64,000 bases of DNA. Source: Streptomyces sp. NBC_01476 (lineage in GTDB: Bacteria; Actinomycetota; Actinomycetes; Streptomycetales; Streptomycetaceae). The stretch is taken from contig NZ_CP109446.1 in assembly GCF_036227265.1 (NCBI RefSeq), positions 1-64,000 of the forward strand. The letters are read 5' to 3'. The notes under the pieces are model-generated. The model ran no database searches. It was not told where the DNA came from and was given only the letters and a program-made list of their open reading frames with translations. Positions 41,593-64,000 of this stretch are shown one piece after another. The position numbers were made by a program, and so were the translations under genes. Within the stretch, counting starts at the first letter, position 1; the number at the start of each line of letters is the position of its first letter.

Positions 41593-41710
41593 GCGTGTCA
41601 CTCCCGAGGCTTCGTTGATTCGAGGGGTGTGGAGGTGGGGGGCGGGATGTGGAGGTGTGCGGTGGCGTGGGGCGGGGGTGGCACGGCGCGGCCCCGGGCG
41701 GCGCCGGCCG

Positions 41711-43738: not shown

Positions 43739-44491
43739 TCAGGCGAATTCGGTCAACGGTGTGGTGACCGCCTCTTGCCATCGGGCTCGGTGGCCGTCAG
43801 CTTGCAGGCGGTAGTAAAGGGTCTCCCGACGCTCGTCACCGGCGGAGCCGGTGTGGTCGCCGATGTTGTGCGCGAGCAGGTAGTGAGCGAAGAGCACGCT
43901 CCCGGCCGGGCCGACCGCCTGCACCGGATCGCCGAGTTCGATCTTCGGATACGGTCCGGGCGCCATGTCCGCGACGCGCGTGAGCGCATCGGCTCCACGC
44001 TCGGCGAGGTACTGACCGAACTTGAGATGAGTACCGGGCCACAGCCACAGGTTGCCCCGCCCCGGTGTTGTGTGATCGGTGAGCCACGTACCTGCGAGCA
44101 GGGTGAACGTGCCCGGGCGGCCGTCGGGTTCCGTCGGAGTCAGGCCATCGACGTGCGGCCCCCCTGGCGGGTACGGCCAGGGAGGGATCGTGGTGGCCAG
44201 CTGTACGCCTTCCGGCCGCTGGATTCCGAGCCCGTCGCGGAGCAACTGCCCAGCCAACTCCCCGATCCTTGTGCGGAAGAAGAAGTCGAGCAGGGGGTGC
44301 CCCTGGTCGCCGAAGTGCCGGAAGACGAAGTGCGGACCCACATGTCCCTCGGCCGGCGGCTGCTTCGCCAGCATCGCTGCGACCACCTGGCGTCCGGCGT
44401 CGATCTGCGAAGGAGTCAGCACGTCCGGAACGATGAGATATCCCTCGCGGCGGAACGTCGTCCTCATGTCGTCAGTGATCTCAGCGGCCAC
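43739..44491 (-). CDS. Phytanoyl-CoA dioxygenase (PhyH) family oxygenase
   Basis: This 250-residue protein is read from GTG 44491. The iron ligands appear as H-x-D in GGPHVDGLTPTEP (about residues 112-116) and the distal His in AHYLLAHNIGDHTG (about 207). An Arg for 2-oxoglutarate follows in ERRETLYYRLQ. It therefore looks like an active non-haem Fe(II)/2-oxoglutarate dioxygenase of the PhyH family. These hydroxylate acyl chains or natural-product intermediates; the substrate here is unknown. No obvious partner gene is adjacent. Confidence 0.82.
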   Translation of the reverse strand: MAAEITDDMRTTFRREGYLIVPDVLTPSQIDAGRQVVAAMLAKQPPAEGHVGPHFVFRHFGDQGHPLLDFFFRTRIGELAGQLLRDGLGIQRPEGVQLATTIPPWPYPPGGPHVDGLTPTEPDGRPGTFTLLAGTWLTDHTTPGRGNLWLWPGTHLKFGQYLAERGADALTRVADMAPGPYPKIELGDPVQAVGPAGSVLFAHYLLAHNIGDHTGSAGDERRETLYYRLQADGHRARWQEAVTTPLTEFA

Positions 44492-45200: not shown

Positions 45201-45797
45201 ATGACCGAGGACCGGGACCGCGCACCGCAGCAGGCCCACGGCACGCCACCCGAGCTGCCACCCGAGCAGGCTCACGATGGTGTCCGGCACGATACGTTCA
45301 CGGTGACGCTGCGCCTCTCCGTGCCCCCCGCCGAGGTGTTCCGCGCGTTCGCGGACCCCGGGCTCCGGCGGCGGTGGTTCAAGCTCCCCGGCACCGGAGC
45401 GACGTACGAGCACGACTTCCGCGTCGGCGGTGGTGAGACCGCGTTCAGCACCTTCGCGACTCCCGATGCGCCCCCTCAGCGGCTCGCGTACTGGTCGCGG
45501 TACATCGACATCACCCCGGACGTCCGGATCGTGTACGTCTACGCGTCACAGGTGGACGGGGTGGTGCGGTGGGCGTCCCTCGCCACCGTCGAGCTGCACG
45601 CCGGGTCGGCGGGGACCGAACTCTCCTGGACGGAGCAGGTCACCTTCGTCACCCCGACCGGCGACGGACGCGACGACCTGCCGCACGTCCGCGGCGGAAC
45701 GCGCCTGCGGCTGAACGGCCTCGCAGCGGCTCTCGCGTCACCCGAGACACCGAGGACGACAACCCCGCACCCGGGCGGACGCAACCAGCTCCCGTGA
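45201..45797 (+). CDS. SRPBCC/AHSA1-family protein
   Basis: This 198-residue protein is read from ATG 45201 with AGGAGG 7 nt upstream. After a 30-residue disordered start it shows the AHSA1-type pattern TLRLSVPPAEVFRAFADPGL, RRRWFKLPG and EHDFRVGGGETAF, then WTEQVTFV. These are START/Bet v1-like helix-grip proteins that bind lipophilic ligands or act in toxin or stress responses. An HxlR regulator is divergent and probably controls it. The ligand is unknown. Confidence 0.82.
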   Translation: MTEDRDRAPQQAHGTPPELPPEQAHDGVRHDTFTVTLRLSVPPAEVFRAFADPGLRRRWFKLPGTGATYEHDFRVGGGETAFSTFATPDAPPQRLAYWSRYIDITPDVRIVYVYASQVDGVVRWASLATVELHAGSAGTELSWTEQVTFVTPTGDGRDDLPHVRGGTRLRLNGLAAALASPETPRTTTPHPGGRNQLP

Positions 45798-48280: not shown

Positions 48281-49060
48281 GGATGTCTCCCGAGGCAGGG
48301 GTGGAGCGGGCGAAGAAATGGGGAGCTGGTCTGCGGGGTGGGGCGGACGGTGGCCGCCCCCGCACGGTGCGGCGCGTGGTCGATGCCGGCGACGGACGGT
48401 GCCGGAAAGGTCCGATGCCTGTACGGGAGGAGCCCGGATCGGCGACCGATCACCTTGGCGCCCTCCTGAGGATCGACGAGGTGCGCCCGTCCGGTGGAGA
48501 CCGAACCAGCGCAGAACCAGCGGGAAGCGGCCAGGCAGGAGCCGCGTCCGAGGAACGGCAGTAACGTAAAACTCGTAAATAACGAAATACAAGAGGCGCG
48601 CACTCATCTTGTGCGCGCGACGATAGATCCGATGTCCGGCCCGTCCGGGTCGGTCACCCCCCGGGCACGGCGGCCGGCCCCCCGCACCGACAGCCGTGGA
48701 CCCGCACGTCCGGGCCGGTCCGACCCGCCGGGACCCATGAGTCCGGCCGTTTCCCCGGCGGCGTGACGGGCGCGTGGGGTCGGAGGTGTGGTCCGGGCGA
48801 GTGGGAACCGAGTTGGGCATGAGGCTTGACATGAGCTGGTGGCGTGGGGCTATCTGATGGAAGACGTTTGATTGTGTTCGCTCGACGCCCCGGCCCGCTG
48901 GGGTGTTGAGCGCTTTCTGTTGCATCAGGTGCATCAGGTGGTGTTCCGCGCGGCGGACCGTTCCCTGCCGGCGCAGGACGTCCGCCGGCGGTGGCCGTCG
49001 CGCGAGCCGTCCACCACCGGCTGTCGCGCTGTCAGGGCGCTGCGATGGAGGAAGAAACTC
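48281..49060. promoter_or_regulatory. Divergent promoter region between GH92 and GH27
   Basis: No gene was found in this 780-bp region. It holds an AT-rich island at 48560-48592 with repeated CGTAAA-type words, likely the GH92 promoter side. GCGCGCAC (48596-48603) and GTGCGCGC (48611-48618) are a perfect inverted repeat. TTGACA at 48826 with TATCTG at 48851 (19-nt spacing) is a possible + strand promoter. Just after it GACGTTTGATTGTG shares GTTTGATT with the GntR site at 42748, which may be chance. Confidence 0.45.
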
Positions 49061-51322
49061 ATGAGGAGACCGATCCGCGGGTGGCTGGCCGCGTTCACCG
49101 GAGCGCTGCTGCTCTCCACGGGCATCACCGTGGCGAGCGGACCGGCCGCGCACGCCGAGGGCGACGGCGCCGCGGCCAAACCGGCGCTGGGATGGAGCAG
49201 TTGGAGCTTCATCCGTCGCAACCCGACCGCGCAGAACATCGAGGCGCAGGCCAAGGCGCTCAAGGACAGCGGGCTGGCGAAGAACGGGTTCGTCTACGCC
49301 AACGTCGACGACTTCTGGTACGAGTGCCCGGGAAGTCAGGGGCCGAACGTCGACGAGTACGGCCGCTGGGTCACCGACCCGGCGAAGTTCCCGCCCAAGG
49401 GCGGGAAGAACGGTGTTCAGGTCGTGGCGGACTATGTGCACTCGCTCGGGCTGAAGTTCGGCCTGTACGTCACGCCCGGCATCTCCCAGCAGGCCGTGGC
49501 GCAGAACACCGCCATCAAGGGCACTGCCTACCACGCAGCCGACATCGCCACTACGGCCACCGAGGCGAACTACAACTGCGGCGGCATGGTGGGGATCGAC
49601 TACGCCAAGCCCGGCGCCCAGCAGTTCGTGAACTCCTGGGCCGACCAGTTCGCGGGCTGGGGCATCGACTACCTGAAGATCGACGGCGTCGGCACGCCCG
49701 ACATCGCCGACGTCCAGGCGTGGTCGAAGGCGCTGCGGCAGACCGGTCGCCACGTCCACCTGGAGCTCTCCAACAGCCTGGACATCAACAACGCCGCCGC
49801 CTGGAAGCAGTTGTCCGACGGCTGGCGCACCGGCGGTGACATCGAGTGCTACTGCGGGCCGGACGGCAGCAGTTACCCGCTGACCACCTGGTCGTCGCTC
49901 ACCTCGCGCTTCGACCAGGTCGCGGCCTGGGCACCGTACGGGGGTCCCGGCGGCTACAACGACTACGACTCCCTGGAGATCGGGAACGGCGCGGACGACG
50001 GCCTCACCCCCGACGAGCGCAGGACGCAGATGAGCCTGTGGTCGCTGGCCGCGTCGCCGCTCTTCCTCGGCACCGACCTGACCCACCTGGATCCGGCCGA
50101 CCTCGGCATGCTCAAGAACACCGACGTCCTCGCGGTCGACCAGGACGGCATCGACGCCACGCGGATCTCCTCGGACGCCGACTCCCAGGTGTTCGCCAAG
50201 ACCGAGCCGAACGGCGACGCGATCGTCGGCCTGTTCAACACCGGCTCCGCGCCCCGGGAGGTCGCCACCACCGCGACGGCGCTGGGCCTGCCCGCGGCTC
50301 GCGACTACGCGCTGCAGGACCTGTGGACCCACCGGCGAACCGAGTCGGCGGGCCGGATCGCCGCAGACGTCCCGCCGCACGGTGTGGCCCTGTACCGCGT
50401 CCACGCCGCCCGCCACGTGGTGAACGCGGCGCCCGACGTCTCGTTCGCGCTCAACTGGGCCCCGGCGGCGAGCGACAGCACGACGCGTACCGTCACCGCG
50501 GTCCTGTCGGACAACGGGTCCCGGCCGGTCACCGACGCCGGCCTCACGCTCACCGGGCCGGCCGGTACGAAGATCACCACCGGTTCCACCACGCGGGCGA
50601 GGACGATCAAGGGCGGCAGCGCCCTGCGGGCCACCTTCACCGTCACCCTGGAGCCGTCGGCCGAACTCTTCGCCTCCAGCGCGTTCCAGGGCACGGCGGA
50701 CTACCGCTACCGCTCCGGGACCAACCGGCTGACGGCGGGTGACACCCTCACCGTCAACCACCCGGTGACCGCCCCTTACCGGACCTACTCCTCCACCACG
50801 GCGGTCTTCAGCCAGTCCGGCACCCAGCTCGGCATCCGCGCCCAGGGCGCCGACCTGTACAACGCCATCAACGAGTACGGCGCGATCTACCTCCCCGGCG
50901 CCGAGCACGACGGCTCCACGACCACGGTGAAGATCAACTCCCAGGCGGACACGGACGTCTGGGCCAAGGCCGGGATCATGGTCCGCAACGACATCACCGA
51001 GTCCGACACCTCACCCGGCTATCTCGCCCTTGTCGCGACCCCCGGCAACGGCTATCTCCTGGACTGGGACAGCGACGGCGACGGACACCTCGACTCCCAG
51101 GACTCCGCCGGCACCGCGGCCTACCCCTCCTGGCTGAAGCTCGTCCGCACCGGCACCACGTACAGCGGCTACTACTCGAAGGACAACTCCACCTGGAAGC
51201 TGGTCGGCACGATCGACCTCCCCACGGCCGCGCCCACCCAGGACGTCGGCCTCACCAACACCTCCCACGCGTCGGGCACCACCAACGAGACCGACTTCGA
51301 CGCCTTCAGCACCACCCCCTGA
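49061..51322 (+). CDS. Secreted GH27 glycosidase (alpha-galactosidase or beta-L-arabinopyranosidase type)
   Basis: I chose ATG 49061 (MRRPIRGWLAAFTGALLLST), preceded by GGAGGAAG; it has a signal peptide ending near HAEG. The 753-residue enzyme shows GH27 motifs LGWSSWSFI, YANVDDFWYEC, IDYLKIDGVG with the nucleophile Asp208, and SDGWRTGGDIE with the acid/base Asp260. After the catalytic barrel a beta domain at about 380-450 follows, then an NEW3-like domain (VTDAGLTLTGPAG). The C-terminal domain is LamG/DUF1349-like (VWAKAGIMVRNDITESDTSP). GH27 includes alpha-galactosidase, alpha-N-acetylgalactosaminidase and beta-L-arabinopyranosidase, so the sugar cannot be fixed. It is divergent from GH92. 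Confidence 0.85.
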   Translation: MRRPIRGWLAAFTGALLLSTGITVASGPAAHAEGDGAAAKPALGWSSWSFIRRNPTAQNIEAQAKALKDSGLAKNGFVYANVDDFWYECPGSQGPNVDEYGRWVTDPAKFPPKGGKNGVQVVADYVHSLGLKFGLYVTPGISQQAVAQNTAIKGTAYHAADIATTATEANYNCGGMVGIDYAKPGAQQFVNSWADQFAGWGIDYLKIDGVGTPDIADVQAWSKALRQTGRHVHLELSNSLDINNAAAWKQLSDGWRTGGDIECYCGPDGSSYPLTTWSSLTSRFDQVAAWAPYGGPGGYNDYDSLEIGNGADDGLTPDERRTQMSLWSLAASPLFLGTDLTHLDPADLGMLKNTDVLAVDQDGIDATRISSDADSQVFAKTEPNGDAIVGLFNTGSAPREVATTATALGLPAARDYALQDLWTHRRTESAGRIAADVPPHGVALYRVHAARHVVNAAPDVSFALNWAPAASDSTTRTVTAVLSDNGSRPVTDAGLTLTGPAGTKITTGSTTRARTIKGGSALRATFTVTLEPSAELFASSAFQGTADYRYRSGTNRLTAGDTLTVNHPVTAPYRTYSSTTAVFSQSGTQLGIRAQGADLYNAINEYGAIYLPGAEHDGSTTTVKINSQADTDVWAKAGIMVRNDITESDTSPGYLALVATPGNGYLLDWDSDGDGHLDSQDSAGTAAYPSWLKLVRTGTTYSGYYSKDNSTWKLVGTIDLPTAAPTQDVGLTNTSHASGTTNETDFDAFSTTP

Positions 51323-51386: not shown

Positions 51387-51635
51387 GTGCCGTCACCCGC
51401 TGCTCCACCCCGGGAGAAAGCGGGGGCGAGAGAGGCGATCCGGGTGGCCGCGGCAGCCGGCTCCACCCGGGACGTGGACGTGGTCACGACCCAGCCGCAC
51501 GGCAGCGGCACAGTACGGTCCCGGCCGCGCGCCCGCGGAGGCACCCTGCCGGGAGCGCGTCACCACCGCTAGCCTGGGGGCAGTTGGGGCACCGCAAACT
51601 GCTTGAGGCTCACCGTCGCACCGGGGAGACGCCGC

Positions 51636-52325
51636 ATGGAACCGGGCACCGCCGCTCCGCCACCGTGGCTCGACCACGTCGCCGACGTCCTGTTCCCCGA
51701 AGCGGGCCTCCGCGCGGGATGGACGGACCGGGTGGAACGCGAACTCGTGCGCCACCAGGGGCAGTTGCCGATGGCCGCCGTGCACGCCTGGCAGTGCGCG
51801 GGCGACCCGCTGCTCACCGGGCCCGAGCACCGCGCGGTCGGGGCCCTGCACCGCCGGACGCTGACAGGACGGCCGAGCCCCGAGCCCGTCTGGCGCGCCG
51901 CCCTGGAGCCCGCGCTCCGCGACCTGTTCACCCGCGCCTACCCCTACCGGGACGCGTACGCGGAGGCCGCGGCGGCCGCGGGCGCCTACGCGCGGGCCAA
52001 CGGCTACGCCGAGGGCGACGCGCGGCAGTACGGCGAGGTCTACGCGCGGCAGAACACCGACACCAACCGCCTCGCCCACGTGGAGGCGAACACGGTCGCG
52101 GGCGCCGCGGCGCTGGCCGCCGCGTACGCCGCCGGGCAGCCGGACGGCTACGCGGCGACCTTCCCGCACGCCCGGGTCGGCGCCGTCGTCACCGCGTACG
52201 CCGACGGTGATCCCGGACGTGCCCGGCGGGCCCGTGAGCGTATCGCCGCGGGGCTGCTGCACGCCCTGGCCGGCCCTGTCGGAGCCGACGGCACCGACGG
52301 CACCGACGGCTCTGTCAGCCCTTGA
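51636..52325 (+). CDS. Uncharacterised Ala/Tyr-rich helical protein beside the NRPS-PKS operon
   Basis: This 229-residue protein is read from ATG 51636 with GGGGAG 8 nt upstream. It shows AWQCAGDPLLTGPEHRAVGA, then a repetitive central section with AYAEAAAAAGAYARANGYAE, YGEVYARQNTDTNR and AAALAAAYAAGQPDGYAA. It looks fully helical. I recall somewhat similar proteins in actinobacterial biosynthetic clusters, without a proven role. Its last 11 nt overlap the 3' end of the convergent dioxygenase. It may mark the cluster border or be a cluster accessory protein. Confidence 0.6.
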   Translation: MEPGTAAPPPWLDHVADVLFPEAGLRAGWTDRVERELVRHQGQLPMAAVHAWQCAGDPLLTGPEHRAVGALHRRTLTGRPSPEPVWRAALEPALRDLFTRAYPYRDAYAEAAAAAGAYARANGYAEGDARQYGEVYARQNTDTNRLAHVEANTVAGAAALAAAYAAGQPDGYAATFPHARVGAVVTAYADGDPGRARRARERIAAGLLHALAGPVGADGTDGTDGSVSP

Positions 52326-53187
52326 GCGGACCGCCGTTGAGCGCGACCCGGCGCCCGTAGCGGGTGAGCGGGTAGTAGTCGTACAGCGCGTGGTGCTGGG
52401 TGCAGCGGTTGTCCCAGAACACCAGGGTGCCCGGCGCCCACCGGATGCGGCAGGTCAGCATCGGGCGGCGGGCGGGCACCTCGCACAGGAAGCGCAGCAG
52501 TGCGTCGCTCTCGTCCGGTGCCAGTTGCGGGATCCGGGCGGTGTAGGCGCCGTTGACGTACAGCACCGGCCGGTCGGTCTCGGGATGCCATACCACCAGC
52601 GGGTGTTCGCTCACCGGGATCACATAGTCGGCCGGCGGGGTGTATCCCTTGAGCGCCAGGCCGCCGTCGTGCACCGCTGTCAGCCCGTCCAGCAGGGTCC
52701 GCAGCGCCGGTGACAGCATCTCGTACGCCAGGTGCATGTTGGCGAACAGTGTGTCGCCGCCGCTGTTGCCCTCCGGGATGCGCGAGATGTACAGCATCGA
52801 GCCGAGCGACGGCTCCTCGTCGGCCGTGCCGTCGGCGTGCCAGCCGTTGCCGGCGACGTTCGCGGCGGCGGGGTCGGTGCTGATCTCCAGGATGTACGGA
52901 TCTCCCTCGGGCGGCGCCGGGTTGACCGGGCGCAGCTCGCCGAAGTGGGCCGCGAAGCGCTTGTGGTCCTCGTCGGAGATGTGCTGGTCACGGAGGACCA
53001 GTACGTGGTGGCGGAGGAACGCGGCCTTCACTTCCGCCAGTTGCTCCGCCGGAAGCTCCTGGGCGAGGTCGACGCCGGTGACTTCGGCACCGATGACGGG
53101 GGTGACCGGTGCGACACCGATCGTGCGGTACTCGGCGGCGGGCCGGGTGGTGACGGCCGCGACGGCCGCCAACTCGTAGCTCTCCAT
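52315..53187 (-). CDS. TauD/TfdA-type Fe(II)/2-oxoglutarate dioxygenase
   Basis: This 290-residue protein is read from ATG 53187 with GAGGAGGAG upstream. A longer frame to 53337 is a low-complexity NAPNAP-type extension and is unlikely. Iron ligands are His117 and Asp119 in NGWHADGTADEEP and distal His265 in RCTQHHALYDYYPL. The 2-oxoglutarate Arg is near 280 (YGRRVALNG). The sequence resembles taurine/2,4-D dioxygenases, and close family members hydroxylate amino acids or tailoring intermediates in NRPS clusters. It is the last same-strand gene after the NRPS-PKS, GSCFA and SGNH genes. It may make a hydroxylated building block or tailor the product. Confidence 0.87.
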   Translation of the reverse strand: MESYELAAVAAVTTRPAAEYRTIGVAPVTPVIGAEVTGVDLAQELPAEQLAEVKAAFLRHHVLVLRDQHISDEDHKRFAAHFGELRPVNPAPPEGDPYILEISTDPAAANVAGNGWHADGTADEEPSLGSMLYISRIPEGNSGGDTLFANMHLAYEMLSPALRTLLDGLTAVHDGGLALKGYTPPADYVIPVSEHPLVVWHPETDRPVLYVNGAYTARIPQLAPDESDALLRFLCEVPARRPMLTCRIRWAPGTLVFWDNRCTQHHALYDYYPLTRYGRRVALNGGPLKG

Positions 53188-53364: not shown

Positions 53365-54069
53365 TCACAGCCCTCGGGCGAGCAGATCGGACAGGATGAG
53401 CCGGCCGAACGCGAGGTTGCCGTGGATCGCGTCGTCCGCCTCGCAGAACTCCGGTCGCTGCAGGCCGTCCGGGCCGGTGGAGCGGGCCCGCAGGTCCACC
53501 ATCTCCACGCCGACGCGGACCAGTTCGGTCCTGATGCTCTCCTGTGCGGCGGCGAAGACGAGCGGGTCGCAGTGGTCGGGGACGCGTTGCGGCGGCATCA
53601 CCGCGAGGACCCGCAGGCCGAGTCCGAGGGCGTGCCGGTAGAAGTCCACCGCGCCGCCGACCATGGCCAGCACGATCGCGTCGAACAGGGCGCTGCCCAG
53701 GAATCCGGGGGCGAACGGGCCCGCCGGCAGCCGGTGGATCCGCCAGTTCGCGGCGGTGGCGACGAAGTGCGCGCACAGGCCGAACGTCGACACCAGGGGG
53801 ACGGTGAGCGCGCCGAGCGCCGGCGTGTCCAGGGCGGCGAGGAAGCCGCGGTAGTACGCGTCCGACTCCTGCTTGCGGAAGACCACGTCTTTTACGGCGA
53901 CGGTGAAGAAGTCCCCGGTGAACTCCCGTCCGGCGCCCAGCGGGCCGCCCTGGAAGGCGATGCCCGCCGCGTGAGCGGCGCGTCCGACGGGTCCGGCGTG
54001 GGAGTCGCCCAGCAGCAGGAATCTAGCGGGGGCCGTAGTAGTCGAGGACGGCGTCGTCACAGATGTCAC
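53365..54069 (-). CDS. SGNH-like hydrolase/acyltransferase
   Basis: This 234-residue protein is read from ATG 54069; a GTG at 54060 is possible. A GDSH block (ARFLLLGDSHAGPVGR, residues 15-30) has the nucleophile Ser of SGNH enzymes. The catalytic Asp-x-x-His could be DDAIHGNLAFG (near 213-216). The usual block II and III glycine and asparagine are less clear. Such proteins esterify or hydrolyse acyl groups. It overlaps the upstream GSCFA gene by 47 nt, which implies coupled expression in the biosynthetic operon. Confidence 0.7.
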   Translation of the reverse strand: MTSVTTPSSTTTAPARFLLLGDSHAGPVGRAAHAAGIAFQGGPLGAGREFTGDFFTVAVKDVVFRKQESDAYYRGFLAALDTPALGALTVPLVSTFGLCAHFVATAANWRIHRLPAGPFAPGFLGSALFDAIVLAMVGGAVDFYRHALGLGLRVLAVMPPQRVPDHCDPLVFAAAQESIRTELVRVGVEMVDLRARSTGPDGLQRPEFCEADDAIHGNLAFGRLILSDLLARGL

Positions 54070-55120
54070 CTCCCGACAGCGTGCGGTGCGGCAGCGTACC
54101 GGCCGCGTCGCCGACCGCGTCGCCGGTCGGGGCTTCGGGCCGCGGCCGGTCGCCGGGGTGTCCGGCGCGGGCGAGGCCCGCCATGAAGTGCCGCATGACG
54201 AAGGCGACGCCGTCCGGTGTGACGGACCGCAGGTTCGGCCCGTAGAACACCCCGCGGAAGGGTGCGCAGGAGATGAGCTCGTAGGACGGGAAGTAGTCGG
54301 TCCCTTCGGTGCCGTTGACCAGTTCGCCGGCCGCGGTCCGCAGGACCGACTTCGACAAGGTGTTGGCCACCAGTGCGTGGCCGCCGGTCGCGGTGGCGGT
54401 GAGCGGCACCGGTGAGACCGTGAGCAGCAGCCGCAGGTCCGGGTTGATCACGCGGGCCAGCGCCACGGCCGCGGCGAGGTCGCGGTGCACCTCCCCCACG
54501 GTGGCGTTGCTGAAGGCGTGCCGCCGCGGGTCGAAGGTGCCGCGTACGGTTCCGGGGCAGGAGGCGTACACGCTTCCGTCGCTCCGGTCCCGCCACGCCT
54601 CGGTGAGCCCCAGGGTGAAGACCAGGCAGCTCGCGGCGGTCAGCCCCCGGCGGATCGCCTCCAGCGTCGTCTCGCGTGCCGCGAGCATCTCGGCGACGGA
54701 GGCGTGCCCGGCGGGTTCGACGCTCGGCCGGAACGGGTCGTACACCCTGCCGTCCTGCGGCCACGCGGTGTCCGGCGGCCGGGTGCGGCCGGCCGCCCAG
54801 GACAGCCACTGGCGGAGCATCGCGGCGGTGTAGACGGTGCCGGTCCGGAAGGAGAACTCCCCGTAGTGCCGGGCTTGTTGCTCCTCCCGGTCGAGGCCGG
54901 GCGGTGGCGGTTCCGCGTCGTACCAGTTGAGGCCGGCGGCCAGGAGTGCGGGGCCGAGGCGGGCGGCGAAGCAGGAGCCGGCGGTCAGGACCGGGTCGTC
55001 GGGGCCGAGGGGGAAGGCGGGCGTCCACACTTCGTCGATGCCGAGCATGCCGGGTTCTGCGACCGCGGGCCGCCAGAAGGAGCGGGCGGGCAGGGAGCGG
55101 TAGGGGTTGCCGGTGGTCAC
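54023..55120 (-). CDS. GSCFA-domain protein (SGNH-related), NRPS-PKS operon
   Basis: I chose GTG 55120 because GAGGAA lies 6 nt before it; GTG 55126 overlaps the NRPS stop and is the alternative. The 365-residue protein has LTAGSCFAARLG (GSC 48-50), the defining GSCFA motif. ARHYGEFSFRTGTVYTA, LVFTLGLTEAW, AFSNATVGEVHRDL and LLLTVSPVPLTATATGGHAL follow, all family blocks. GSCFA proteins are SGNH-fold relatives with an unproven acyl-transfer or hydrolase role. It sits 2 nt after the NRPS-PKS stop, and its end overlaps the SGNH gene, so the pair probably acts on the NRPS-PKS product or a carrier-bound precursor. Confidence 0.82.
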   Translation of the reverse strand: MTTGNPYRSLPARSFWRPAVAEPGMLGIDEVWTPAFPLGPDDPVLTAGSCFAARLGPALLAAGLNWYDAEPPPPGLDREEQQARHYGEFSFRTGTVYTAAMLRQWLSWAAGRTRPPDTAWPQDGRVYDPFRPSVEPAGHASVAEMLAARETTLEAIRRGLTAASCLVFTLGLTEAWRDRSDGSVYASCPGTVRGTFDPRRHAFSNATVGEVHRDLAAAVALARVINPDLRLLLTVSPVPLTATATGGHALVANTLSKSVLRTAAGELVNGTEGTDYFPSYELISCAPFRGVFYGPNLRSVTPDGVAFVMRHFMAGLARAGHPGDRPRPEAPTGDAVGDAAGTLPHRTLSGGDICDDAVLDYYGPR

Positions 55121-55122
55121 GG

Positions 55123-58100
55123 TCACTTCCTCGGTCCGGGGGCCGGCTCGCCGGCCGCGGAGGTGCGCGGGAGGTCGTCGGCGTGGGCGGGGCCGTACGC
55201 GGTGGGCGCCGCGCCGGACTCGCCGAGGTCGCCGTTGATCGCGGCGGCCACGGTCCGCGCGTGCGGGGCCGCCACGACGCCGTAGTGCGTGGTGTCCAGC
55301 AGGTGCCAGGATCCGGTACGGCCGACGTACGGCAGCCACGGTTCCGGCCGTGCGGCCGGCGCGTCGGCGGGCGGCAGATCCGGCTCGGGGCGGGTGGCGA
55401 GCCAGATGCGCACCGGTGTGGTGGTGAGGCCGGGCATCCGGTACGTGGTCATGCTCCGCAGGTTCGCCCGGCAGCAGCGGGCCAGGCGTTCCGCGTAGTC
55501 CGTGTGAGCGGCCGGGCCGCCGTCCGCTGCCTGCCCGTCCGGGTGTCCCTGGCCGAGTTCGCGGGTGAACACCGCCCGCAGTTCGGCCTCGTCGTACCGG
55601 GCGAGCCGCGGACCGGAACCGGGCGGCGGCGGGTCCAGCAGGTAGAGGTTTCGCACCGGGCGGTGCTCCTGTTCGGCCTGGGCCGCCATCTCGATCGCGA
55701 CCCAGCCGCCGAACGACCAGCCCGCGAGCCTGACGCGGTGCGCGGCGGCCGGGAACCGGGTCTCCAGCGCCTGCCGGTACCGGGCCGCCCGTTCGGGGAG
55801 GGTCCAGGCGGGGGCGGCCGGGTCCCGCAGGGCGGGGTCGGCGATCAGACACACCGTCAGCCGGGGGTCGAGCGCGGACACCAGGGGACGGTAGGACTGG
55901 ATGTCGCCGCCGACGGGATGCACCAGGCAGAGCACGTCCGGGCCTGCCCCTTCCTGCCAGACCTCCAGCGGTACGTCCTGCGACGCCGCCTGCGGTGCGG
56001 CGGGTCCGCCCGGCATCTCCTCCCGGAGGAGGGCGAGGATCCCGGCGAGGCCCACCCGGTGGCCGAGCCGGGCGAGTTCGAGTTCCACCCCGAAGTGCCG
56101 TTTGATCTCGTCGATCAGGTCGAGCATCGTCAGCGAGTCGGCGCCGAGGTCGTACAAGGACGCCCGCGGGTCGAGGTCGTCCACGCCCAGCCAGGTGCGC
56201 AGCAGGTCCCCGAGGACGGTCTCGGCCGGCTCCGTGTCCCCCGTGACCGCTGTCCCCGCCGTGCCCGCGCCGGGAAGGACGGCGGGACGGTCCCGGGCGT
56301 AGAAGGTCCGGGATTCCGCCAGGTCGGTCACCGACACCAGCACCTGCGGGAAGCCACTGCCGATCGCCCGGGACAGCACCCGTCCGGCCTCCGCGACGGT
56401 CAGGCCGACGGCCAGATGGGCGCGGTGCCGGGCGTCCGCGCCCGGGGCGTCCACCGCCATGCCCGTCTCGCGCCACACGTCCCAGTCGACGGTGATCCGT
56501 ACGGTGCTCTCGTCCGCTGTCGAGCGGTGGTGCGCGAAGGCGTCCAGCAGCCCGGCCGCGGCGGCGTAGTCGAGCTGGCCGACCCCGCCGAGCAGTGCCG
56601 ACATCGACGAGCAGTACACGACGACAGCCGGGTCGTGACGGCGGATCAGCTCCTCGGTGACGAGCGCGGCGTTCGCCTTGGCGGCGGTCACCGGGCGGGC
56701 GGTCGTGGCCTGCCGCAGGGCGATCAGGCCGCCGCCCGCCACACCGACGGCGTGCACGACGCCGTCCAGCCGCGAGGTGTGCGCCGCGACGAGGTCGGCG
56801 ATCCCGTTCGGGGTGCCCCCCGTCAGGTCCGCGGCGATGAGCCCCACACGGTCGGCGTAGGGCGCGAGTTCGGCGGGGAGGTGGGGGCGGCGGGCCAGCA
56901 GGAGCACCTGTCGCGCGCCGCCTTCCAGCAGCCACCGGGCGACGGTCCTGCCGATGCCGCCGGTGCCGCCGAGAATCAGGTGCGTGCCGCCCGGCGGGAG
57001 CGGCGACGCGGAGTCGGCGGGGTCCGGCAGCGGCGAGGTGTCCGGTGCCCACCAGAAGCCCCGGCGCAGTGCCAGCCGCCGGGGCGGCCGGCCGGTCCCG
57101 GCGACGAGACCGGCCACGGCTCCCGCCCAGGCGGCCGGGCCGGGGCCGGGCAGGTCGAGCCAGTGGGCGTCCACCAGGCCCTCCTGCGGGCCCACTTCGC
57201 CGATCCCCGCGAGCAGTCCCGCCTCGGGCCGGGTGACCGTGCCGTCGGCCGGCATCGCGCCGGACGACAGCCACCACACGCGCAGGTCCGGCCTGCCGCC
57301 GGCCGCCTGGGCCAGGGCGGCGGGGGTGTCCAGGCAGGCCCACCGGGCGTGTTCGAGGGTGGTGGCGGTCACCGGGCCGTCCGCCGCCAGCGGCAGGGTG
57401 TGCAGCCAGTCCACGCTTTCGGCGCCTTCGGGTGCCTCGTGCTTGAGGGTGTCGAGGATGCGGCGGAGTGCCGCGGGGTCCGCCGGGTCCGCGGTGAAGG
57501 TGTCAGGAGCGGTCCGGGCGTAGCCGCTGCCTGCGGTCACGTGCACCACGCGGGCGTGGGTCTTCGCCAGCGCGGTCGCCACGGTGGGCCCCAAGGTGCC
57601 CGCGGTGAGCAGGACCGCCGTCCTGGGGCGGCGGGCCGGTGGGGTGGTGGCGGCGCGGTGGCTGCGTGCCCAGTGCTGCTGGTGCAGCCACCGCTCCTCG
57701 GGAAGCCGGCGCGGCCCGTCCCCTTCCGTTTCTGCTGTCGGTTCGGCTGCGTCGGGGGGCACGGTCCCGGGGAGGGTGTCCCGGTAGTGGTAGTCGGCGA
57801 GCTCGAACGCGGGCGGCGGGAAGTCCCAGGGCGCGGGGGCGGGTCCGCCTGCCCAGGCGATCTCCTCCCCGCGCAGCCATGCCGCGGCGAGTTCCGGGGC
57901 GGTGCGCCCGCCCACCGGTACGGGACCCCCTGCTGCGGCCACGGGCCCGGCGGTCCGTCCCTGACCGCCCTCCACGGCAACCGTCTGCGGAGCCGCTGCC
58001 GAAACGCTCCCGCGCGGCGGGTTCACCGTGTCTTCCCGCGCGACCCCGCCCGGTGAGGCGGCCCCGCGGCCCGGCCGGCCCTCGGCGGCGTCTCCCGGTG

Positions 58101-61100
58101 GCTGCTCCTCGCCCAGTGAACGCAGCCAGCGGATCGCGCTCGCCGGGTCGGAGCAGGGGGCCGCCGCGCGCCAGCGGGACGGCGGGCGGCCGGACTGGAG
58201 GTGGCGCAGGACCTGCGGGTAGCGGCCCGGGTGGGCGGCGAGGTACGCGGCGGTGCGGGCCGCGTCCTCGATGAGCGCGGGGCGGCTCGGGGCCGAGAGG
58301 ATCAGGCACGGCGGCGGTGCGGGCGGATCGGCCGGGGCCGGCGCGGCCACGGCTTCGAGGACGACGTGGGCGTTCGTGCCGCCGACGCCGAAGCTGCTGA
58401 CGGCGGCCACCCGGGGGCGTCCTTTGGGCCAGGGCTCGGCGCGCACGGGGATGCGGAAGGGGCCGAGGTCGGTGCCGATCGCCGGGTTGAGGGAACGGAA
58501 GTCCACATTGGGCGGGATCACCCCGTGGTGCACCGCGAGCACCGCGCGGACCAGGCCGACCACGCCTGCCGCCGCCCCGAGGTGGCCGAGCTGGCTCTTG
58601 ACGGAGGCGAGCGCGCAGTCCCCGGTGCCGAACGCCTGGCGCAGCGCCTCCACTTCGACCGGGTCGCCGAGCCGGGTGCCCGTGCCGTGCGCCTCGACGT
58701 AGCCGACGTCGGCGCCGGTCCGGCCGCTGCGCCGCAGGGCCGTACGGATCACCGCGCGCTGCCCGGCGACCGAGGGGGCGCTGTAACTCATCTTGGCCGC
58801 GCCGTCGTTGGTGAGTGCCGAACCGGTGATGACCGCGTAGACGGTGTCGCCGTCGGCCAGGGCCCGTCGCAGCGGCTTGAGCACCACGACGCCGACGCCG
58901 CTGGCGCCGACCGTGCCGGTGGCGTCGTCGCTGAAGGGCCGGCAGTGGCCGTCGGCGGAGAAGATGTGCTGGGGCTGGTAGCGGTAGCCGTCGCCGAGTC
59001 CGGTGTCGACCAGGACTCCCCCGGCGAGCATCACGTCGGCGTCGTCCTGCCGGAGCAGGCCGGCCGCGACGTGCACGGCGACGAGGGAACTGGAGCACGC
59101 CGCCTGGGTGGAGAAGGCCGGTCCGGTCAGACCCAGGTGGTAGGCGGCCTTGGTGGTGAGGAAGTCCTTGTCGTGGTGGAGGGCGAGCTGGAAGGGGTCG
59201 GGGAGCCGGTCGGGGCCGGTCTCGCGCAGCATGGCCTGGAAGTAGGTGTTCTCGCCCGCCCCGGCGACCAGGCCGACCCGCAGCGCCTGCGGGTCGGCGA
59301 TGCCGGCGTGGGCGAGGGCCTGGACGCAGGCCATCAGCAGATGCCGCTGCTGCGGGTCCATCAGGCGGGCTTCCTGCCTGCTGATGCCGAACCGGTCGGG
59401 GTCGAAGGCGAGCAGCCCGTCCATCTGGCTGCGGGCACCGACGAGGCCGTCGGGCGCGGGGAAGTGCTCGATACCGCGGGCGCCGGTCTCGACCATCCGC
59501 CAGAAGGCGGCGAGGTCGGGGGCGCCGGGCAGCCGTACGGCCATGCCGACGACCGCGATCGGTTCGTCGGCGCGCGGCGGCTGCGGGGCGCCGGCCGTGC
59601 GGGCGCGGTCCGTGTCTCCCTTCCCGGCGTTGCCCGTACGCGCGCTGTCCGTGTCCCGCTTCCCGCCGCCGGCCGTACGCCCGGTGCCGGTCTCCGGCTT
59701 TCCGCCGCCGGCGAGGAACCGGGCCAGCCGCCGGACCGTCACGTGCTCGAACAGGTCGGCGACGGTGAAGCGCAGCCCCAGCTCGGTGGTGCAGCGCAGA
59801 TGGAACCGCATCAGGGCCAGGCTGGACGCGCCGGCTTCGAAGAAGGTCTGCTCAGGGCCGATCTCCCCGCCGGTGACCGCCTCGAAGGCCGCTGCCAGCC
59901 GGGCCTCGTCCGCCGACCAGCCGGGCTCGGCCCGCTCCCCCGCGCGCAGTTCCGTGCCCGGCGCGTGCAGCGCGGCCCGGCGGTCCAGCTTGCCGCTGGG
60001 GGTACGCGGGAGGGTGTCCAGCAGGCGGTAGCGGCGAATGCGGACGTGAGCAGGAAGGAGTCCGCCGAGGTGGGCGGTGAGGTCTTCCGGGCTCGGCGCG
60101 CGGTCCCCACACCGCAGGCAGGCGACCAGTCCCTGCCCGTCGTAGGCCACGACGGCGCCGGTGACCTGGGGGTGGCGCAGGAGTGCGGCCTCCACCTGGG
60201 CGGGTTCCAGCCGGTGTCCGCTGAGCTTGATCTGGTCGTCGGCGCGGCCGAGGCAGTGCAGCAGGCCGTGCTCGTCGAAGCGCGCCCGGTCGCCCGTCCG
60301 GTAGAACAGGCCCAGGCCGGGGAGGTCCGTGAAGCGGGTGGGGTCGGCGGCGGCGTCTCCGGTGTAGCAGCGGAGAGCCATCGGTCCGCCGATGAACAGC
60401 TCGCCGGGCCGGCCCGGGGGCAGCGGCTCGCCGGCCTCGTCGGCCACCCGCAGCAGCGCGCCCGCGACGGGCCTGCCGATGGACGGGCGTTCGGGCCAGC
60501 GTGCCGGGTCGCCCGACAGGCACAGGCTGCTGACGACGTGGGTCTCGGTGGGCCCGTAGTGGTTGAACAGGCGTGCGCCGGGCAGGCCCGCGAACCATTG
60601 CCGCAGGACGTCGGTGCACACCAGCTGTTCGCCGGCGACGACCACCTCGCGCAGCCGGGACGGGTAGCGGCCGGAGCGGACGCCGTACTCGGTGAGCAGG
60701 TGCAGGGCGACGCACGGCATGAAGATCCGTTCGACACCGGCCGTCTCCAGCTGGTCCAGCAGGGCGGGGGCGTCCTGCCGCCAGCCGGGGCGGACCAGGT
60801 GCAGCCGGCCGCCGGTGCACAGGGTGCCGAAGATCTCCTGGAAGGAGACGTCGAAGGAGAGCATCGAGAACTGCTGGGTGACGGCGGGTGCGCCGAGGCC
60901 GCCGTCCCGGGCCTGCCACTGGACGAGGTTGGCCAGCGTGCGGTCCGGCACCTGGACGCCCTTGGGGGTGCCGGTCGATCCGGAGGTGAACAGCGTGTAG
61001 AGCGGGCGCGTCCCGTCGTGCGGGGGAAGCGGCGGCGCGTCGTCGGCGGTGAGGGTGATCTCGTGCCGGGGCAGCCCACCGGGGGCCACTTCGTCGAGTC

Positions 61101-64000
61101 CGGTCGCGCCGCCGGGCGGTACGAGGACGCACAACGGCGCGGCCTGGCGCAGCACATCGCGCAGCAGGGCGGGCGGGTAGCCGGGATCCAGCGGTACCGC
61201 CGTCCAGTTGAGCCGGGCGAGGGCGAGCAGGGCCACCACGTGCTCCACGGACGGCTCGGCGTACAGGGCCGCGCAGCGCGGGCCCGCGTCGTCAGGACCG
61301 GGGTGCGCTCGGAGCAGCCGGACCGCCAACGCGTTGGCGTACGCGTCGAGTTCGGCGTACGTCAGCGAGCGGTCGCCGCTGACGAGGGCGACGGCGGCGG
61401 GTGTGCGGTCCACCTGCCGGGCGAAGCCCTCGGCCATGGTGGTCCAGGCGAGTTCCTGCGGGGCGCCGCGGCCGGGGTCGGGAAGGGCCCGGCGGTAGGG
61501 GGCGACGAGGTCCACGGGGGTGGCCGGTCCGGCGGAGGAGAGCAGGTCGATGCCGCGGGCGAACAGCGCGGCCAGGTCGGCGGCCTGCTGCTCGGTGAAG
61601 TGGCCGTCGGCGTACTCCCACAGGCATTCCAGCCCGTCGCCGAGCTCGATCACGCTGAGCGTCATCGGGCATTTGGCGCCGGTGGGTGCCGGCCACAGCG
61701 GGCGGGTGGTGCAGCCCGCGAGGTCCAGGGCGGCGAAGTCGGTGTTCTCCAGAACGAACAGGAAGTCGAACGGCCCCTGCCCTGCGGCGGGTTGGGTGTC
61801 CGGGAGGACGTCGGCGAGTGCCACGTCCTGCCGGTCGAGCAGGGCGCGGGTGTCGGCGGCCAGGCGTCGCGCCTGGTCGCGCAGCGGCTCGCCGGGGGTG
61901 ACGGTGAGCGGGAGCAGCACGGTGTTGGCGAACATGCCGACGCTGTCGGCGAATCCTCCCACCGGGCGGCCCGTGACGGGCGCGGCCGTCCGGGGCCGCA
62001 GTCGGCCGGTCACCCCGTAGACGCTCCAGGTGAACAGGCCGAGCAGCAACTCGAAGCGGGTCAGGCCCAGTTCGGTGCAGAGCCGGTCGACGGCGGCGCG
62101 GCGTACGGGGTCGAGCGTGGTGTGCAGCAGGTGGGCGGTGCCGGGGACGGGGCCGGTCGGTGCCAGGGGCTCGGTGTCCTGGCCGGCCGCCGCGTGCAGG
62201 GTGCGCAGTTCGTCGCGGAGTGCGTGGTAGGCGGGGTGGGCGAACCACTCGCGCTGCCAGGCGGCGTGGTCCAGCGGGGTCGGCGCGCCCGCCTGTCCGC
62301 CGGGGGTGGCCGCGCCTTCGCGCGCCGCGCGGTAGCCGGCCGACAGGTCGCGGAAGAGGACACCGAGGGACCAGCCGTCCACGGCGATGTGGTGCAGGTG
62401 CAGCAGGAGCGTGCCGCCGCCGTCGTCCGGCAGCCAGCAGGCCCGCAGCATCCGCGGGCGGGCCAGGTCGAAGGTCTCGGCGAAGAAGCGCTCGGCGAAG
62501 GCGCGCGGTTCCTCGCCGGCGCTTTCGGTGCCGCTCTCCGTGTCCTGTGCGGGGCCGGGCGCCTCGTGCCAGGGGTCGTACGGTTCGCCCACGGTCTGCT
62601 GCACGCCCTCGGCCGTGGCGTGGAAGCCGGTGCGCAGGGCCGCGTGCCGTACGACCAGGGCGGCCAGGGCGCTGCGCAGCGCCGCGGGGTCCACCTCGCC
62701 GTCCAGCCGGAAGGCCAGCGGCACACCATAGGCGCGGGAGGACGGGGAGCGCTGCTGGAGGAGCCACAGGCGTTGCTGTTCTGAGGTGGCCGGTGCGGTC
62801 CGGGCCCCTGCCGGGGCGGGCAGTTGGGGGTAGGGCGCAGCCACGGGCTCCCGGTCGCGGCCGACCGCGTCGGCGACAGCGGCGAGGTCGCCCCCGGTGA
62901 TCAGTGACTGCGGGAGGTCGCGGCCCCAGCGCCGCCGCACCTCGAACCGCAGGCGCAGCGCCTTGAGGGAGTCGCCGCCCACGGCGGTCCACCGGTCGCC
63001 GAGGCGCAGGCCGGGGGTACCGAGGACGGCGGCTGCCAGGTCCAGCACCTCGCGCTGCCGGGCGGTGACGGGTGTGTCGTCCGTCGCGGGGCGCCACTGC
63101 GGCAGGTCCGCGGCCAGCAGGGCGGCCTGGTCGATCTTGCCGTTGGCGTTGCGCGGCAGTGCGTCGACGCGGTGGATCCGGTGCGGGCGCATGTAGGCGG
63201 GCAGGCCGGCGGCGAGGTGGGCGTCGAGGTCCTCGAACGTCGTCTCGCCGCCGAGGACCACCCAGGCCAGCAGTTCGCCGGTGCCGTCGGCGTCCCGCCG
63301 TGCGCACACGTATGCCTGGCGGACGGCGCGGTGGCGGGCGATGTGCCGTTCCACCTCGCCGGGTTCGATCCGGAAGCCGCGGACCTTGACCTGGCGGTCG
63401 GCGCGCCCGACGTACTCCACGAGGCCGTCGGCGCCCGCGCGCACCAGGTCGCCGGTGCGGTAGAAGCGGGTGCTGCCGCCGTCGTACCAGGGCAGGGTGA
63501 CGAAGCGGCGGGCGGTCTCCGCGGGCAGGCCGCGGTAGCCGGCCGCGACGCCCGCACCGGAGAGGTACAGCTCGGCCAGTTCGCCGGGGGCCGCCTCACG
63601 CCCCCCGCCGGGCACGGCCAGGACCGCGCCGGTACGGGGCAGGGGCCGCCCGATCGGGACCACGTCGGCGGCGAAGTCGCGGGGAACGGGGTGGTACAGG
63701 GCGAAGGTCGTCGTCTCGGTGGGGCCGTAGATGTTGTGCAGCCGGGTGGGTGCGCCGGGGTTGTGGCGGTACCAGTCGCGGAGCGTCCGGGCGTTGAGCT
63801 GTTCACCGCCGACCAGCACCTGGCGGGCGCCCGCGAAGCAGTCGGGCACCTCGGCGACCACGGCGTTGAAGAGGGCGACGGTGACGAAGGCGGTGTCGAT
63901 ACGTTCGCGCAGCAGGGCGGCGGCGAGTGCGCGGGGCGTGCGGACGGTCTCGTCGGCGAGGATCACACAGCGGCCTCCGGTGAGCAGCGGCACCCACACC
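55123..64000 (-). CDS. Hybrid NRPS-PKS, (A)-T-C-A-T-KS-KR-ACP-TE, 5' end outside window
   Basis: There are 2,958 codons in the window. Adenylation domain 1 is partial, to about 295 (NIYGPTETT, YRTGDLV, NANGKID). T1 Ser is 344. A condensation domain follows at 400-830 (HHIAVDG at 536). A2 is at 850-1345 (LFTSGSTGTPKG, NHYGPTETH, TPSGKLD). T2 Ser is near 1393. KS is at 1477-1890 with Cys1635 (AACSSS), His1771 and His1806. No AT follows. A linker leads to a KR at 2337-2510 (GGTGGIG at 2344, YCSSM, QLDYAA Tyr2478; the following Asn position is Ala). ACP Ser is 2622. The terminal TE has Ser2762 (GWSFGG) and His2905. The product is a peptide extended by one reduced ketide and released by the TE. 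Substrates cannot be deduced. Confidence 0.93.
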   Translation of the reverse strand, partial: VWVPLLTGGRCVILADETVRTPRALAAALLRERIDTAFVTVALFNAVVAEVPDCFAGARQVLVGGEQLNARTLRDWYRHNPGAPTRLHNIYGPTETTTFALYHPVPRDFAADVVPIGRPLPRTGAVLAVPGGGREAAPGELAELYLSGAGVAAGYRGLPAETARRFVTLPWYDGGSTRFYRTGDLVRAGADGLVEYVGRADRQVKVRGFRIEPGEVERHIARHRAVRQAYVCARRDADGTGELLAWVVLGGETTFEDLDAHLAAGLPAYMRPHRIHRVDALPRNANGKIDQAALLAADLPQWRPATDDTPVTARQREVLDLAAAVLGTPGLRLGDRWTAVGGDSLKALRLRFEVRRRWGRDLPQSLITGGDLAAVADAVGRDREPVAAPYPQLPAPAGARTAPATSEQQRLWLLQQRSPSSRAYGVPLAFRLDGEVDPAALRSALAALVVRHAALRTGFHATAEGVQQTVGEPYDPWHEAPGPAQDTESGTESAGEEPRAFAERFFAETFDLARPRMLRACWLPDDGGGTLLLHLHHIAVDGWSLGVLFRDLSAGYRAAREGAATPGGQAGAPTPLDHAAWQREWFAHPAYHALRDELRTLHAAAGQDTEPLAPTGPVPGTAHLLHTTLDPVRRAAVDRLCTELGLTRFELLLGLFTWSVYGVTGRLRPRTAAPVTGRPVGGFADSVGMFANTVLLPLTVTPGEPLRDQARRLAADTRALLDRQDVALADVLPDTQPAAGQGPFDFLFVLENTDFAALDLAGCTTRPLWPAPTGAKCPMTLSVIELGDGLECLWEYADGHFTEQQAADLAALFARGIDLLSSAGPATPVDLVAPYRRALPDPGRGAPQELAWTTMAEGFARQVDRTPAAVALVSGDRSLTYAELDAYANALAVRLLRAHPGPDDAGPRCAALYAEPSVEHVVALLALARLNWTAVPLDPGYPPALLRDVLRQAAPLCVLVPPGGATGLDEVAPGGLPRHEITLTADDAPPLPPHDGTRPLYTLFTSGSTGTPKGVQVPDRTLANLVQWQARDGGLGAPAVTQQFSMLSFDVSFQEIFGTLCTGGRLHLVRPGWRQDAPALLDQLETAGVERIFMPCVALHLLTEYGVRSGRYPSRLREVVVAGEQLVCTDVLRQWFAGLPGARLFNHYGPTETHVVSSLCLSGDPARWPERPSIGRPVAGALLRVADEAGEPLPPGRPGELFIGGPMALRCYTGDAAADPTRFTDLPGLGLFYRTGDRARFDEHGLLHCLGRADDQIKLSGHRLEPAQVEAALLRHPQVTGAVVAYDGQGLVACLRCGDRAPSPEDLTAHLGGLLPAHVRIRRYRLLDTLPRTPSGKLDRRAALHAPGTELRAGERAEPGWSADEARLAAAFEAVTGGEIGPEQTFFEAGASSLALMRFHLRCTTELGLRFTVADLFEHVTVRRLARFLAGGGKPETGTGRTAGGGKRDTDSARTGNAGKGDTDRARTAGAPQPPRADEPIAVVGMAVRLPGAPDLAAFWRMVETGARGIEHFPAPDGLVGARSQMDGLLAFDPDRFGISRQEARLMDPQQRHLLMACVQALAHAGIADPQALRVGLVAGAGENTYFQAMLRETGPDRLPDPFQLALHHDKDFLTTKAAYHLGLTGPAFSTQAACSSSLVAVHVAAGLLRQDDADVMLAGGVLVDTGLGDGYRYQPQHIFSADGHCRPFSDDATGTVGASGVGVVVLKPLRRALADGDTVYAVITGSALTNDGAAKMSYSAPSVAGQRAVIRTALRRSGRTGADVGYVEAHGTGTRLGDPVEVEALRQAFGTGDCALASVKSQLGHLGAAAGVVGLVRAVLAVHHGVIPPNVDFRSLNPAIGTDLGPFRIPVRAEPWPKGRPRVAAVSSFGVGGTNAHVVLEAVAAPAPADPPAPPPCLILSAPSRPALIEDAARTAAYLAAHPGRYPQVLRHLQSGRPPSRWRAAAPCSDPASAIRWLRSLGEEQPPGDAAEGRPGRGAASPGGVAREDTVNPPRGSVSAAAPQTVAVEGGQGRTAGPVAAAGGPVPVGGRTAPELAAAWLRGEEIAWAGGPAPAPWDFPPPAFELADYHYRDTLPGTVPPDAAEPTAETEGDGPRRLPEERWLHQQHWARSHRAATTPPARRPRTAVLLTAGTLGPTVATALAKTHARVVHVTAGSGYARTAPDTFTADPADPAALRRILDTLKHEAPEGAESVDWLHTLPLAADGPVTATTLEHARWACLDTPAALAQAAGGRPDLRVWWLSSGAMPADGTVTRPEAGLLAGIGEVGPQEGLVDAHWLDLPGPGPAAWAGAVAGLVAGTGRPPRRLALRRGFWWAPDTSPLPDPADSASPLPPGGTHLILGGTGGIGRTVARWLLEGGARQVLLLARRPHLPAELAPYADRVGLIAADLTGGTPNGIADLVAAHTSRLDGVVHAVGVAGGGLIALRQATTARPVTAAKANAALVTEELIRRHDPAVVVYCSSMSALLGGVGQLDYAAAAGLLDAFAHHRSTADESTVRITVDWDVWRETGMAVDAPGADARHRAHLAVGLTVAEAGRVLSRAIGSGFPQVLVSVTDLAESRTFYARDRPAVLPGAGTAGTAVTGDTEPAETVLGDLLRTWLGVDDLDPRASLYDLGADSLTMLDLIDEIKRHFGVELELARLGHRVGLAGILALLREEMPGGPAAPQAASQDVPLEVWQEGAGPDVLCLVHPVGGDIQSYRPLVSALDPRLTVCLIADPALRDPAAPAWTLPERAARYRQALETRFPAAAHRVRLAGWSFGGWVAIEMAAQAEQEHRPVRNLYLLDPPPPGSGPRLARYDEAELRAVFTRELGQGHPDGQAADGGPAAHTDYAERLARCCRANLRSMTTYRMPGLTTTPVRIWLATRPEPDLPPADAPAARPEPWLPYVGRTGSWHLLDTTHYGVVAAPHARTVAAAINGDLGESGAAPTAYGPAHADDLPRTSAAGEPAPGPRK

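What the first reader, a model, noticed from the sequence alone, without database searches (positions are those of the whole stretch)
55123..64000. NRPS-PKS assembly line ends with an AT-less ketide module and TE
Seen: KS, linker, KR, ACP, TE with no AT between KS and KR, though the linker after the KS has a region like that normally following an AT (AWLRGEEIAWAGGP). The extender unit must come from a separate AT or an unusual loading route. The KR also has Ala where the catalytic Asn is expected. With the order A-T-C-A-T-KS the product is a short peptide plus one ketide, with no match I know of.
Basis: partly seen in the sequence, partly recalled or inferred. Interest (0 to 1): 0.8.

Follow-up and report, generated by a model that had tools for sequence, protein, structure and literature searches.

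The report
Detoxin/rimosamide-type cluster with AT-less module
The gene is the core enzyme of a detoxin/rimosamide-type natural-product cluster, a known family whose ketide module lacks its own loading domain and is thought to borrow one from fatty-acid synthesis, so the find is a new member of a known kind.

Summary
The gene (minus strand, 55123-64764, starting 764 bases beyond the window) encodes A-T-C-A-T-KS-KR-ACP-TE; Pfam finds no AT, a structure model shows none, and the KR's catalytic Asn is Ala. 'No match I know of' does not hold. With its neighbours (upstream C-A-T-TE NRPS, GSCFA protein, SGNH-like protein, TauD dioxygenase, PipD-like ORF) it forms a detoxin/rimosamide-like (DRL) cluster. 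The same set surrounds the gene in 15 of 15 Streptomycetaceae relatives, as far as the fetched DNA reaches. A missing AT is published for all known DRL enzymes, and housekeeping FabD was shown in 2025 to load the ACP of one, PipC of Pseudomonas entomophila (PMC12828459). Here the only discrete AT found in the genome is FabD. A-domain codes read as Ile-like and Pro-like, which fits the detoxinine core. The KR Asn is variable in the family (Asn in 32 of 49 modules; at least five changes on a tree), so Ala is weak evidence for a dead KR. What stays open is small: whether the KR reduces normally in the window's all-Ala clade, where three of five members have Arg for the catalytic Lys too.

The parts
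55123..64000 (-). NRPS-PKS gene A-T-C-A-T-KS-KR-ACP-TE (full gene 55123-64764, start outside the window)
   Evidence: Pfam; start codons
63136..64000 (-). First A domain (cut by the window edge; runs to about 64569); code DAFFLGITF, Ile-like
   Evidence: Pfam; code read from alignment; meaning of the code recalled
61555..62802 (-). Condensation domain
   Evidence: Pfam
60364..61425 (-). Second A domain; code DVQFVAHVV, Pro-like
   Evidence: Pfam; code; meaning recalled
59713..59895 (-). Carrier domain before the KS
   Evidence: Pfam
58498..59565 (-). Ketosynthase, Cys and both His present
   Evidence: Pfam; residues 49 of 49
58252..58488 (-). Post-KS linker domain (KAsynt_C_assoc)
   Evidence: Pfam; model
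57778..57894 (-). Post-AT linker without an AT before it
   Evidence: conserved in 15 of 15 aligned sequences
56467..56988 (-). Ketoreductase; Lys, Ser, Tyr present, Asn site (56554-56556) is Ala
   Evidence: Pfam; residues
56134..56136 (-). Serine codon of the ACP
   Evidence: alignment
55549..55932 (-). Thioesterase domain (matched part)
   Evidence: Pfam; Ser 49 of 49
54023..55126 (-). GSCFA-family protein, PipG-like
   Evidence: Pfam PF08885; start and synteny; Cys conserved in 72 of 72 rows
53365..54069 (-). SGNH-like protein, PipF-like
   Evidence: no Pfam or NCBIfam match; Ser 74 of 74 and His 71 of 74 rows; synteny
52315..53187 (-). TauD-family dioxygenase, PipE/RmoL-like
   Evidence: Pfam PF02668; metal-site WHxD 71 of 71 rows
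51603..52325 (+). ORF convergent with TauD, PipD candidate (listed start TTG; true start may lie further in)
   Evidence: no NCBIfam match; conserved beside TauD; in Pseudomonas relatives it lies between the NRPS-PKS and TauD, where pipD stands

Best explanation
This is a detoxin/rimosamide-like (DRL) biosynthetic cluster, about 51.6-68.8 kb of the contig. The NRPS-PKS loads Ile (or Val), couples it to Pro, and its KS extends the dipeptide by one malonate, giving the detoxinine skeleton. The malonate is put on the ACP in trans, most likely by housekeeping FabD, since the module keeps only the linkers that flank an AT. The KR makes the beta-hydroxyl. The upstream C-A-T-TE enzyme makes an acyl-amino acid and its TE esterifies it onto that hydroxyl; the last TE releases the depsipeptide. 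TauD hydroxylates the proline ring, and the GSCFA, SGNH-like and PipD-like proteins O-acetylate it. Shown here: domains, no AT, catalytic residues, gene set, conservation, FabD as the only discrete AT found. Inferred from published relatives: all chemistry, its timing, and FabD loading.
For: Same domain series as RmoI and same C-A-T-TE partner as RmoH. GSCFA, SGNH-like, TauD and the small ORF beside it, matching PipG, PipF, PipE and PipD. The set recurs in 15 of 15 Streptomycetaceae relatives as far as the DNA reaches and in Pseudomonas. S. rimosus, the rimosamide species, has the GSCFA, SGNH-like, TauD and small-ORF genes on one contig (L049) and the KR-ACP-TE part at 56% identity on another. 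A codes Ile-like and Pro-like. Only discrete AT found: FabD, beside FabH and ACP genes. PipC of P. entomophila is loaded by FabD in vitro, and PipC homologues of known DRL clusters lack an AT.
Against: No product or expression data. KR Asn is Ala. The PipG His51 site is Arg here, though 61 of 72 rows have His. The small ORF is the weakest match (35-51% in actinobacterial relatives, not found in 10 of 58 named loci). The code of the upstream A domain could not be assigned. The A codes were compared with recalled tables only. No protein of a characterised DRL producer strain was compared directly; the S. rimosus strain here is NRRL WC-3904, not the published producer.
Confidence: 0.94

Rival explanations
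1. Same DRL cluster, but the ACP is loaded by an AT inside another PKS of the genome, or self-acylates, rather than by FabD.
For: Three more AT matches exist in ORFs of 2065-2772 aa. PipC ACP self-acylated at 25 uM or more in the published assay.
Against: Those ATs sit inside large multidomain frames. FabD of two species loads PipC ACP, and pipC alone made its product in E. coli.
Confidence: 0.12
2. Same DRL cluster, but the KR does not reduce: the product keeps a beta-ketone and the acyl-amino acid is attached elsewhere, for instance at the proline hydroxyl.
For: Asn of the catalytic tetrad is Ala in the window and in all five members of its clade (support 95), and Lys is Arg in three of them.
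Against: Lys, Ser, Tyr and the nucleotide motif are intact in the window. Asn is replaced in 17 of 49 modules. In Pseudomonas 20 of 22 genomes with the module have Ser, and a Pseudomonas product is reduced and esterified at this carbon, though the residue in that strain was not read. The ester-making NRPS is intact in the window and in L026 and L031.
Confidence: 0.08
3. A diverged AT hides between KS and KR.
For: The span from KS His to KR Tyr is 672 residues, near the top of the family range of 542-674.
Against: No AT match by Pfam. The extra residues fall in stretches with pLDDT under 50 (489-542, 590-649). The model aligns over about 590 residues to KS-plus-linker structures of about that length, while in KS-AT structures the same parts span about 870-890 residues.
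Confidence: 0.01

Closest known systems
Rimosamide and detoxin clusters of Streptomyces (RmoH, RmoI, RmoL)
   Same: C-A-T-TE partner; one NRPS-PKS protein specific for Ile and Pro; TauD gene (as described in PMC9503745)
   Different: Sequences of the published producers were not compared; S. rimosus WC-3904 has Asn at the KR site, the window Ala; the upstream A code is unassigned
Miramide cluster of Streptomyces mirabilis (mirA-mirG)
   Same: Same domain series, no AT, dioxygenase and hypothetical genes
   Different: MirF and MirE split the enzyme between KS and KR; here it is one protein
Pseudotetraivprolide cluster of Pseudomonas entomophila (pipA-H)
   Same: AT-less PipC, dioxygenase PipE, acetylation set PipD, PipF, PipG
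   Different: Longer NRPS part (PipA, PipB) and N-acetyltransferase PipH there; gene order and strands differ in the Pseudomonas relatives seen
Trans-AT PKS modules (bacillaene, oxazolomycin type)
   Same: KS, linker domain and post-AT linker without an AT
   Different: Those lines are recalled to have dedicated trans-AT genes; none was found here

Membership tests
Detoxin/rimosamide-like (DRL) clusters | Hybrid NRPS-PKS A-T-C-A-T-KS-KR-T-TE without AT | tested here: met
Detoxin/rimosamide-like (DRL) clusters | TauD-like dioxygenase gene | tested here: met
   PF02668; conserved site
Detoxin/rimosamide-like (DRL) clusters | Separate NRPS ending in T-TE (C-A-T-TE in Streptomyces) | tested here: met
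Detoxin/rimosamide-like (DRL) clusters | GSCFA (PipG) and SGNH-like (PipF) pair | tested here: met
Detoxin/rimosamide-like (DRL) clusters | PipD | tested here: inconclusive
   Conserved small ORF in the right place; not compared with PipD itself
Detoxin/rimosamide-like (DRL) clusters | A domains for Val/Ile and Pro | tested here: inconclusive
   Codes DAFFLGITF and DVQFVAHVV fit recalled Ile and Pro codes; no code table was searched
Detoxin/rimosamide-like (DRL) clusters | Detoxinine-containing depsipeptide product | not testable with these tools
   needs LC-MS
Trans-AT PKS module | KS with AT-flanking linkers, no AT domain | tested here: met
   supportive only
Trans-AT PKS module | Dedicated trans-AT gene | tested here: not met
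   PF00698 gives 4 places in the genome: 3 inside large ORFs and FabD; none in the cluster
Active PKS ketoreductase | Lys, Ser, Tyr, Asn tetrad | tested here: not met
   Asn site is Ala, other three present; the Asn is variable in this family

The most novel reading that the evidence does not exclude
A clade of detoxin-like clusters (window, L026, L042, L047, L053) has an eroding KR tetrad: Ala for Asn in all five and Arg for Lys in three. If these KRs no longer reduce, the clade makes beta-keto detoxinine analogues joined to their acyl-amino acid by a different bond; if they do reduce, they work with Ser and Tyr but without Asn and, in three, without Lys. Either would be a new branch of chemistry or enzymology in this anti-antibiotic family.
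Probability: 0.1. Interest if true: 0.4.

Novelty: new member of a known kind. Interest (0 to 1): 0.18.

Why it matters
It settles the AT-less puzzle for this locus: the layout is the rule in a known family, and the missing step most likely comes from primary metabolism. It adds a producer candidate in a genus where the 34 other genomes searched lack the SGNH-like marker. It also shows that the KR Asn has been replaced repeatedly in a family whose ester bond needs the hydroxyl this KR makes, which can be tested directly.

Tried and rejected
An AT hidden in the linker: not borne out. A dedicated trans-AT gene: none found with PF00698 in the genome. FabH and ACP beside FabD were recognised by eye from translations, not by a family search. 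One search used two queries in a wrong frame (NRPS1 and GSCFA); its numbers for these are void and were redone. Paper searches without result: detoxinine with ketosynthase, a five-term search on trans-AT and FabD, detoxin with B-1347, ketoreductase with catalytic asparagine; one on C2-type ketoreductases gave one paper, not opened. The original rimosamide paper is not held.

Rows dropped before the 49-module count: of 66 relatives' rows, 7 duplicates, 8 incomplete modules and 3 without the module. The residue counts keep duplicates (some genomes appear both as unnamed and named loci). In one search, L121 and L122 are pieces of one genome, so 23 rows are 22 genomes. The tree is a quick one and warns that the window sits on a long branch. 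Of the 10 named loci without the NRPS-PKS in the fetched DNA, only 3 genomes were searched for it elsewhere (3 of 3 found).

Full report
What is there. The window is bases 1-64000 of an 8.40 Mb single contig. The gene in the finding runs on the minus strand from 55123 to ATG 64764 or 64761, past the window edge, and overlaps the stop of the gene before it. Pfam reads A, T, C, A, T, KS, KAsynt_C_assoc, KR, ACP and TE and lists no acyltransferase. The gene before it (64761-68816, outside the window; start) is C-A-T-TE. After it on the same strand come a GSCFA-family protein (54023-55126), an SGNH-like protein without Pfam match (53365-54069) and a TauD dioxygenase (52315-53187). A small ORF (51603-52325) runs towards TauD from the other side.

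AT absence. The AT model PF00698 finds four places in the genome, none in this cluster: three in ORFs of 2065-2772 aa and one in a FabD-sized ORF. The latter is followed by what read as FabH and ACP genes (by eye). A structure model of KS plus linker from 28 sequences has mean pLDDT 67 and pTM 0.72. It shows the KS, a small linker domain (about 421-484), disordered stretches (489-542, 590-649) and the post-AT linker between them. Its best matches are KS-plus-linker and KS-AT structures. Trans-AT KS chains such as OzmN KS2 and the bacillaene KS align over about 585 residues of their own, KS-AT chains over ranges of about 870-890. The top row, ClbI, is a KS-AT enzyme.

Relatives. The SGNH-like protein served as marker. 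It occurs in 1 of 35 genomes of the genus (the window's own) and in 16 of 394 sampled genomes of the family, own included. Around it, in 15 of 15 relatives, lie the same genes: NRPS, NRPS-PKS, GSCFA, SGNH-like, TauD and small ORF. Two of them are cut: L035 lacks the upstream part at a contig end, and L031 lacks the end of TauD and the small ORF because the fetched stretch stops there. Among 58 named loci GSCFA is found in 56, TauD in 55, the small ORF in 48 and a piece of the NRPS-PKS in 48; part of the absences are at contig ends. Hosts include Streptomyces (S. rimosus among them), Kitasatospora, Nocardia, Micromonospora, Amycolatopsis and seven Pseudomonas. Of the ten loci without the NRPS-PKS, three genomes were searched and all three have it elsewhere, S. 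rimosus at 56% identity over the KR-ACP-TE part.

What it is. This gene set is the published detoxin/rimosamide-like family. In PMC9503745 (parts 1, 3 and 4 of 5 read) RmoH is C-A-T-TE, RmoI is a single NRPS-PKS specific for Ile and Pro, RmoL is the TauD homologue, and the miramide enzymes lack an AT. In PMC12828459 (parts 1-3 of 5 read) an AT is said to be absent from all PipC homologues of known DRL clusters. FabD of E. coli and of P. entomophila malonylates the PipC ACP in vitro, with some self-acylation at 25 uM or more. The PipB TE makes the ester, PipE hydroxylates proline, and PipD, PipF and PipG are needed for the acetylation. Passages of PMC8302735 and PMC12911931 agree on the core genes and on antidote activity against blasticidin S. 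Residues named for PipF (Ser, His) and PipG (Cys) have counterparts here, conserved in 74 of 74, 71 of 74 and 72 of 72 rows, duplicates included; the PipG His51 site is Arg in the window. A-domain codes, compared with recalled tables, are Ile-like and Pro-like and vary little among 15 sequences. The upstream code DAHFLGGLY is shared by 10 of 14 relatives, with a one-letter variant in another, and could not be assigned.

The ketoreductase. Across 49 distinct modules, window included, the site is Asn in 32, Ser in 8, Ala in 5 and Gly in 4; Ser and Tyr are invariant and Lys is Arg in 6. On a tree made without the Lys and Asn columns the fewest changes between Asn and not-Asn are five. The window falls in a five-member clade that is all Ala (support 95, quick method, window on a long branch). 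Three of the five, L042, L047 and L053, also have Arg for Lys. S. rimosus has Asn. In Pseudomonas 22 of 298 genomes have the module, 20 with Ser and 2 with Asn. A Pseudomonas product carries the reduced, esterified centre, but the residue in that strain was not read. Asn loss is thus probably tolerated in the family and is weak evidence for a dead KR.

Verdict. Still open: FabD loading in this strain, the acyl-amino acid partner, and the KR of the Ala clade.

Noticed in passing
L042, L047, L053 (Streptomyces), KR of the homologous enzyme: Both the catalytic Lys (Arg) and Asn (Ala) of the KR are replaced while Ser and Tyr stay.
   Followed up: partly
L060, L063, L066 (Micromonospora), KR of the homologous enzyme: Arg in place of the catalytic Lys, with Asn kept.
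   Followed up: no
L069, L079, L082, L084, L085, L087, L088 (Pseudomonas): NRPS-PKS and TauD lie on the strand opposite to GSCFA and SGNH-like genes, unlike the actinobacterial order.
   Followed up: no
L121, L122 (one Pseudomonas genome): The homologous NRPS-PKS frame is split in two, so the match comes as two pieces.
   Followed up: no
window 3712-9093 (-): 1793-aa ORF with an AAA/NACHT-type ATPase domain.
   Followed up: no
window 38794-41601 (-) and 48872-51322 (+): Likely secreted carbohydrate-active proteins: beta-helix with two F5/8 type C domains, and an alpha-galactosidase.
   Followed up: no
window 43739-44491 (-) and 45201-45797 (+): PhyH-type dioxygenase and an AHSA1-type protein.
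   Followed up: no
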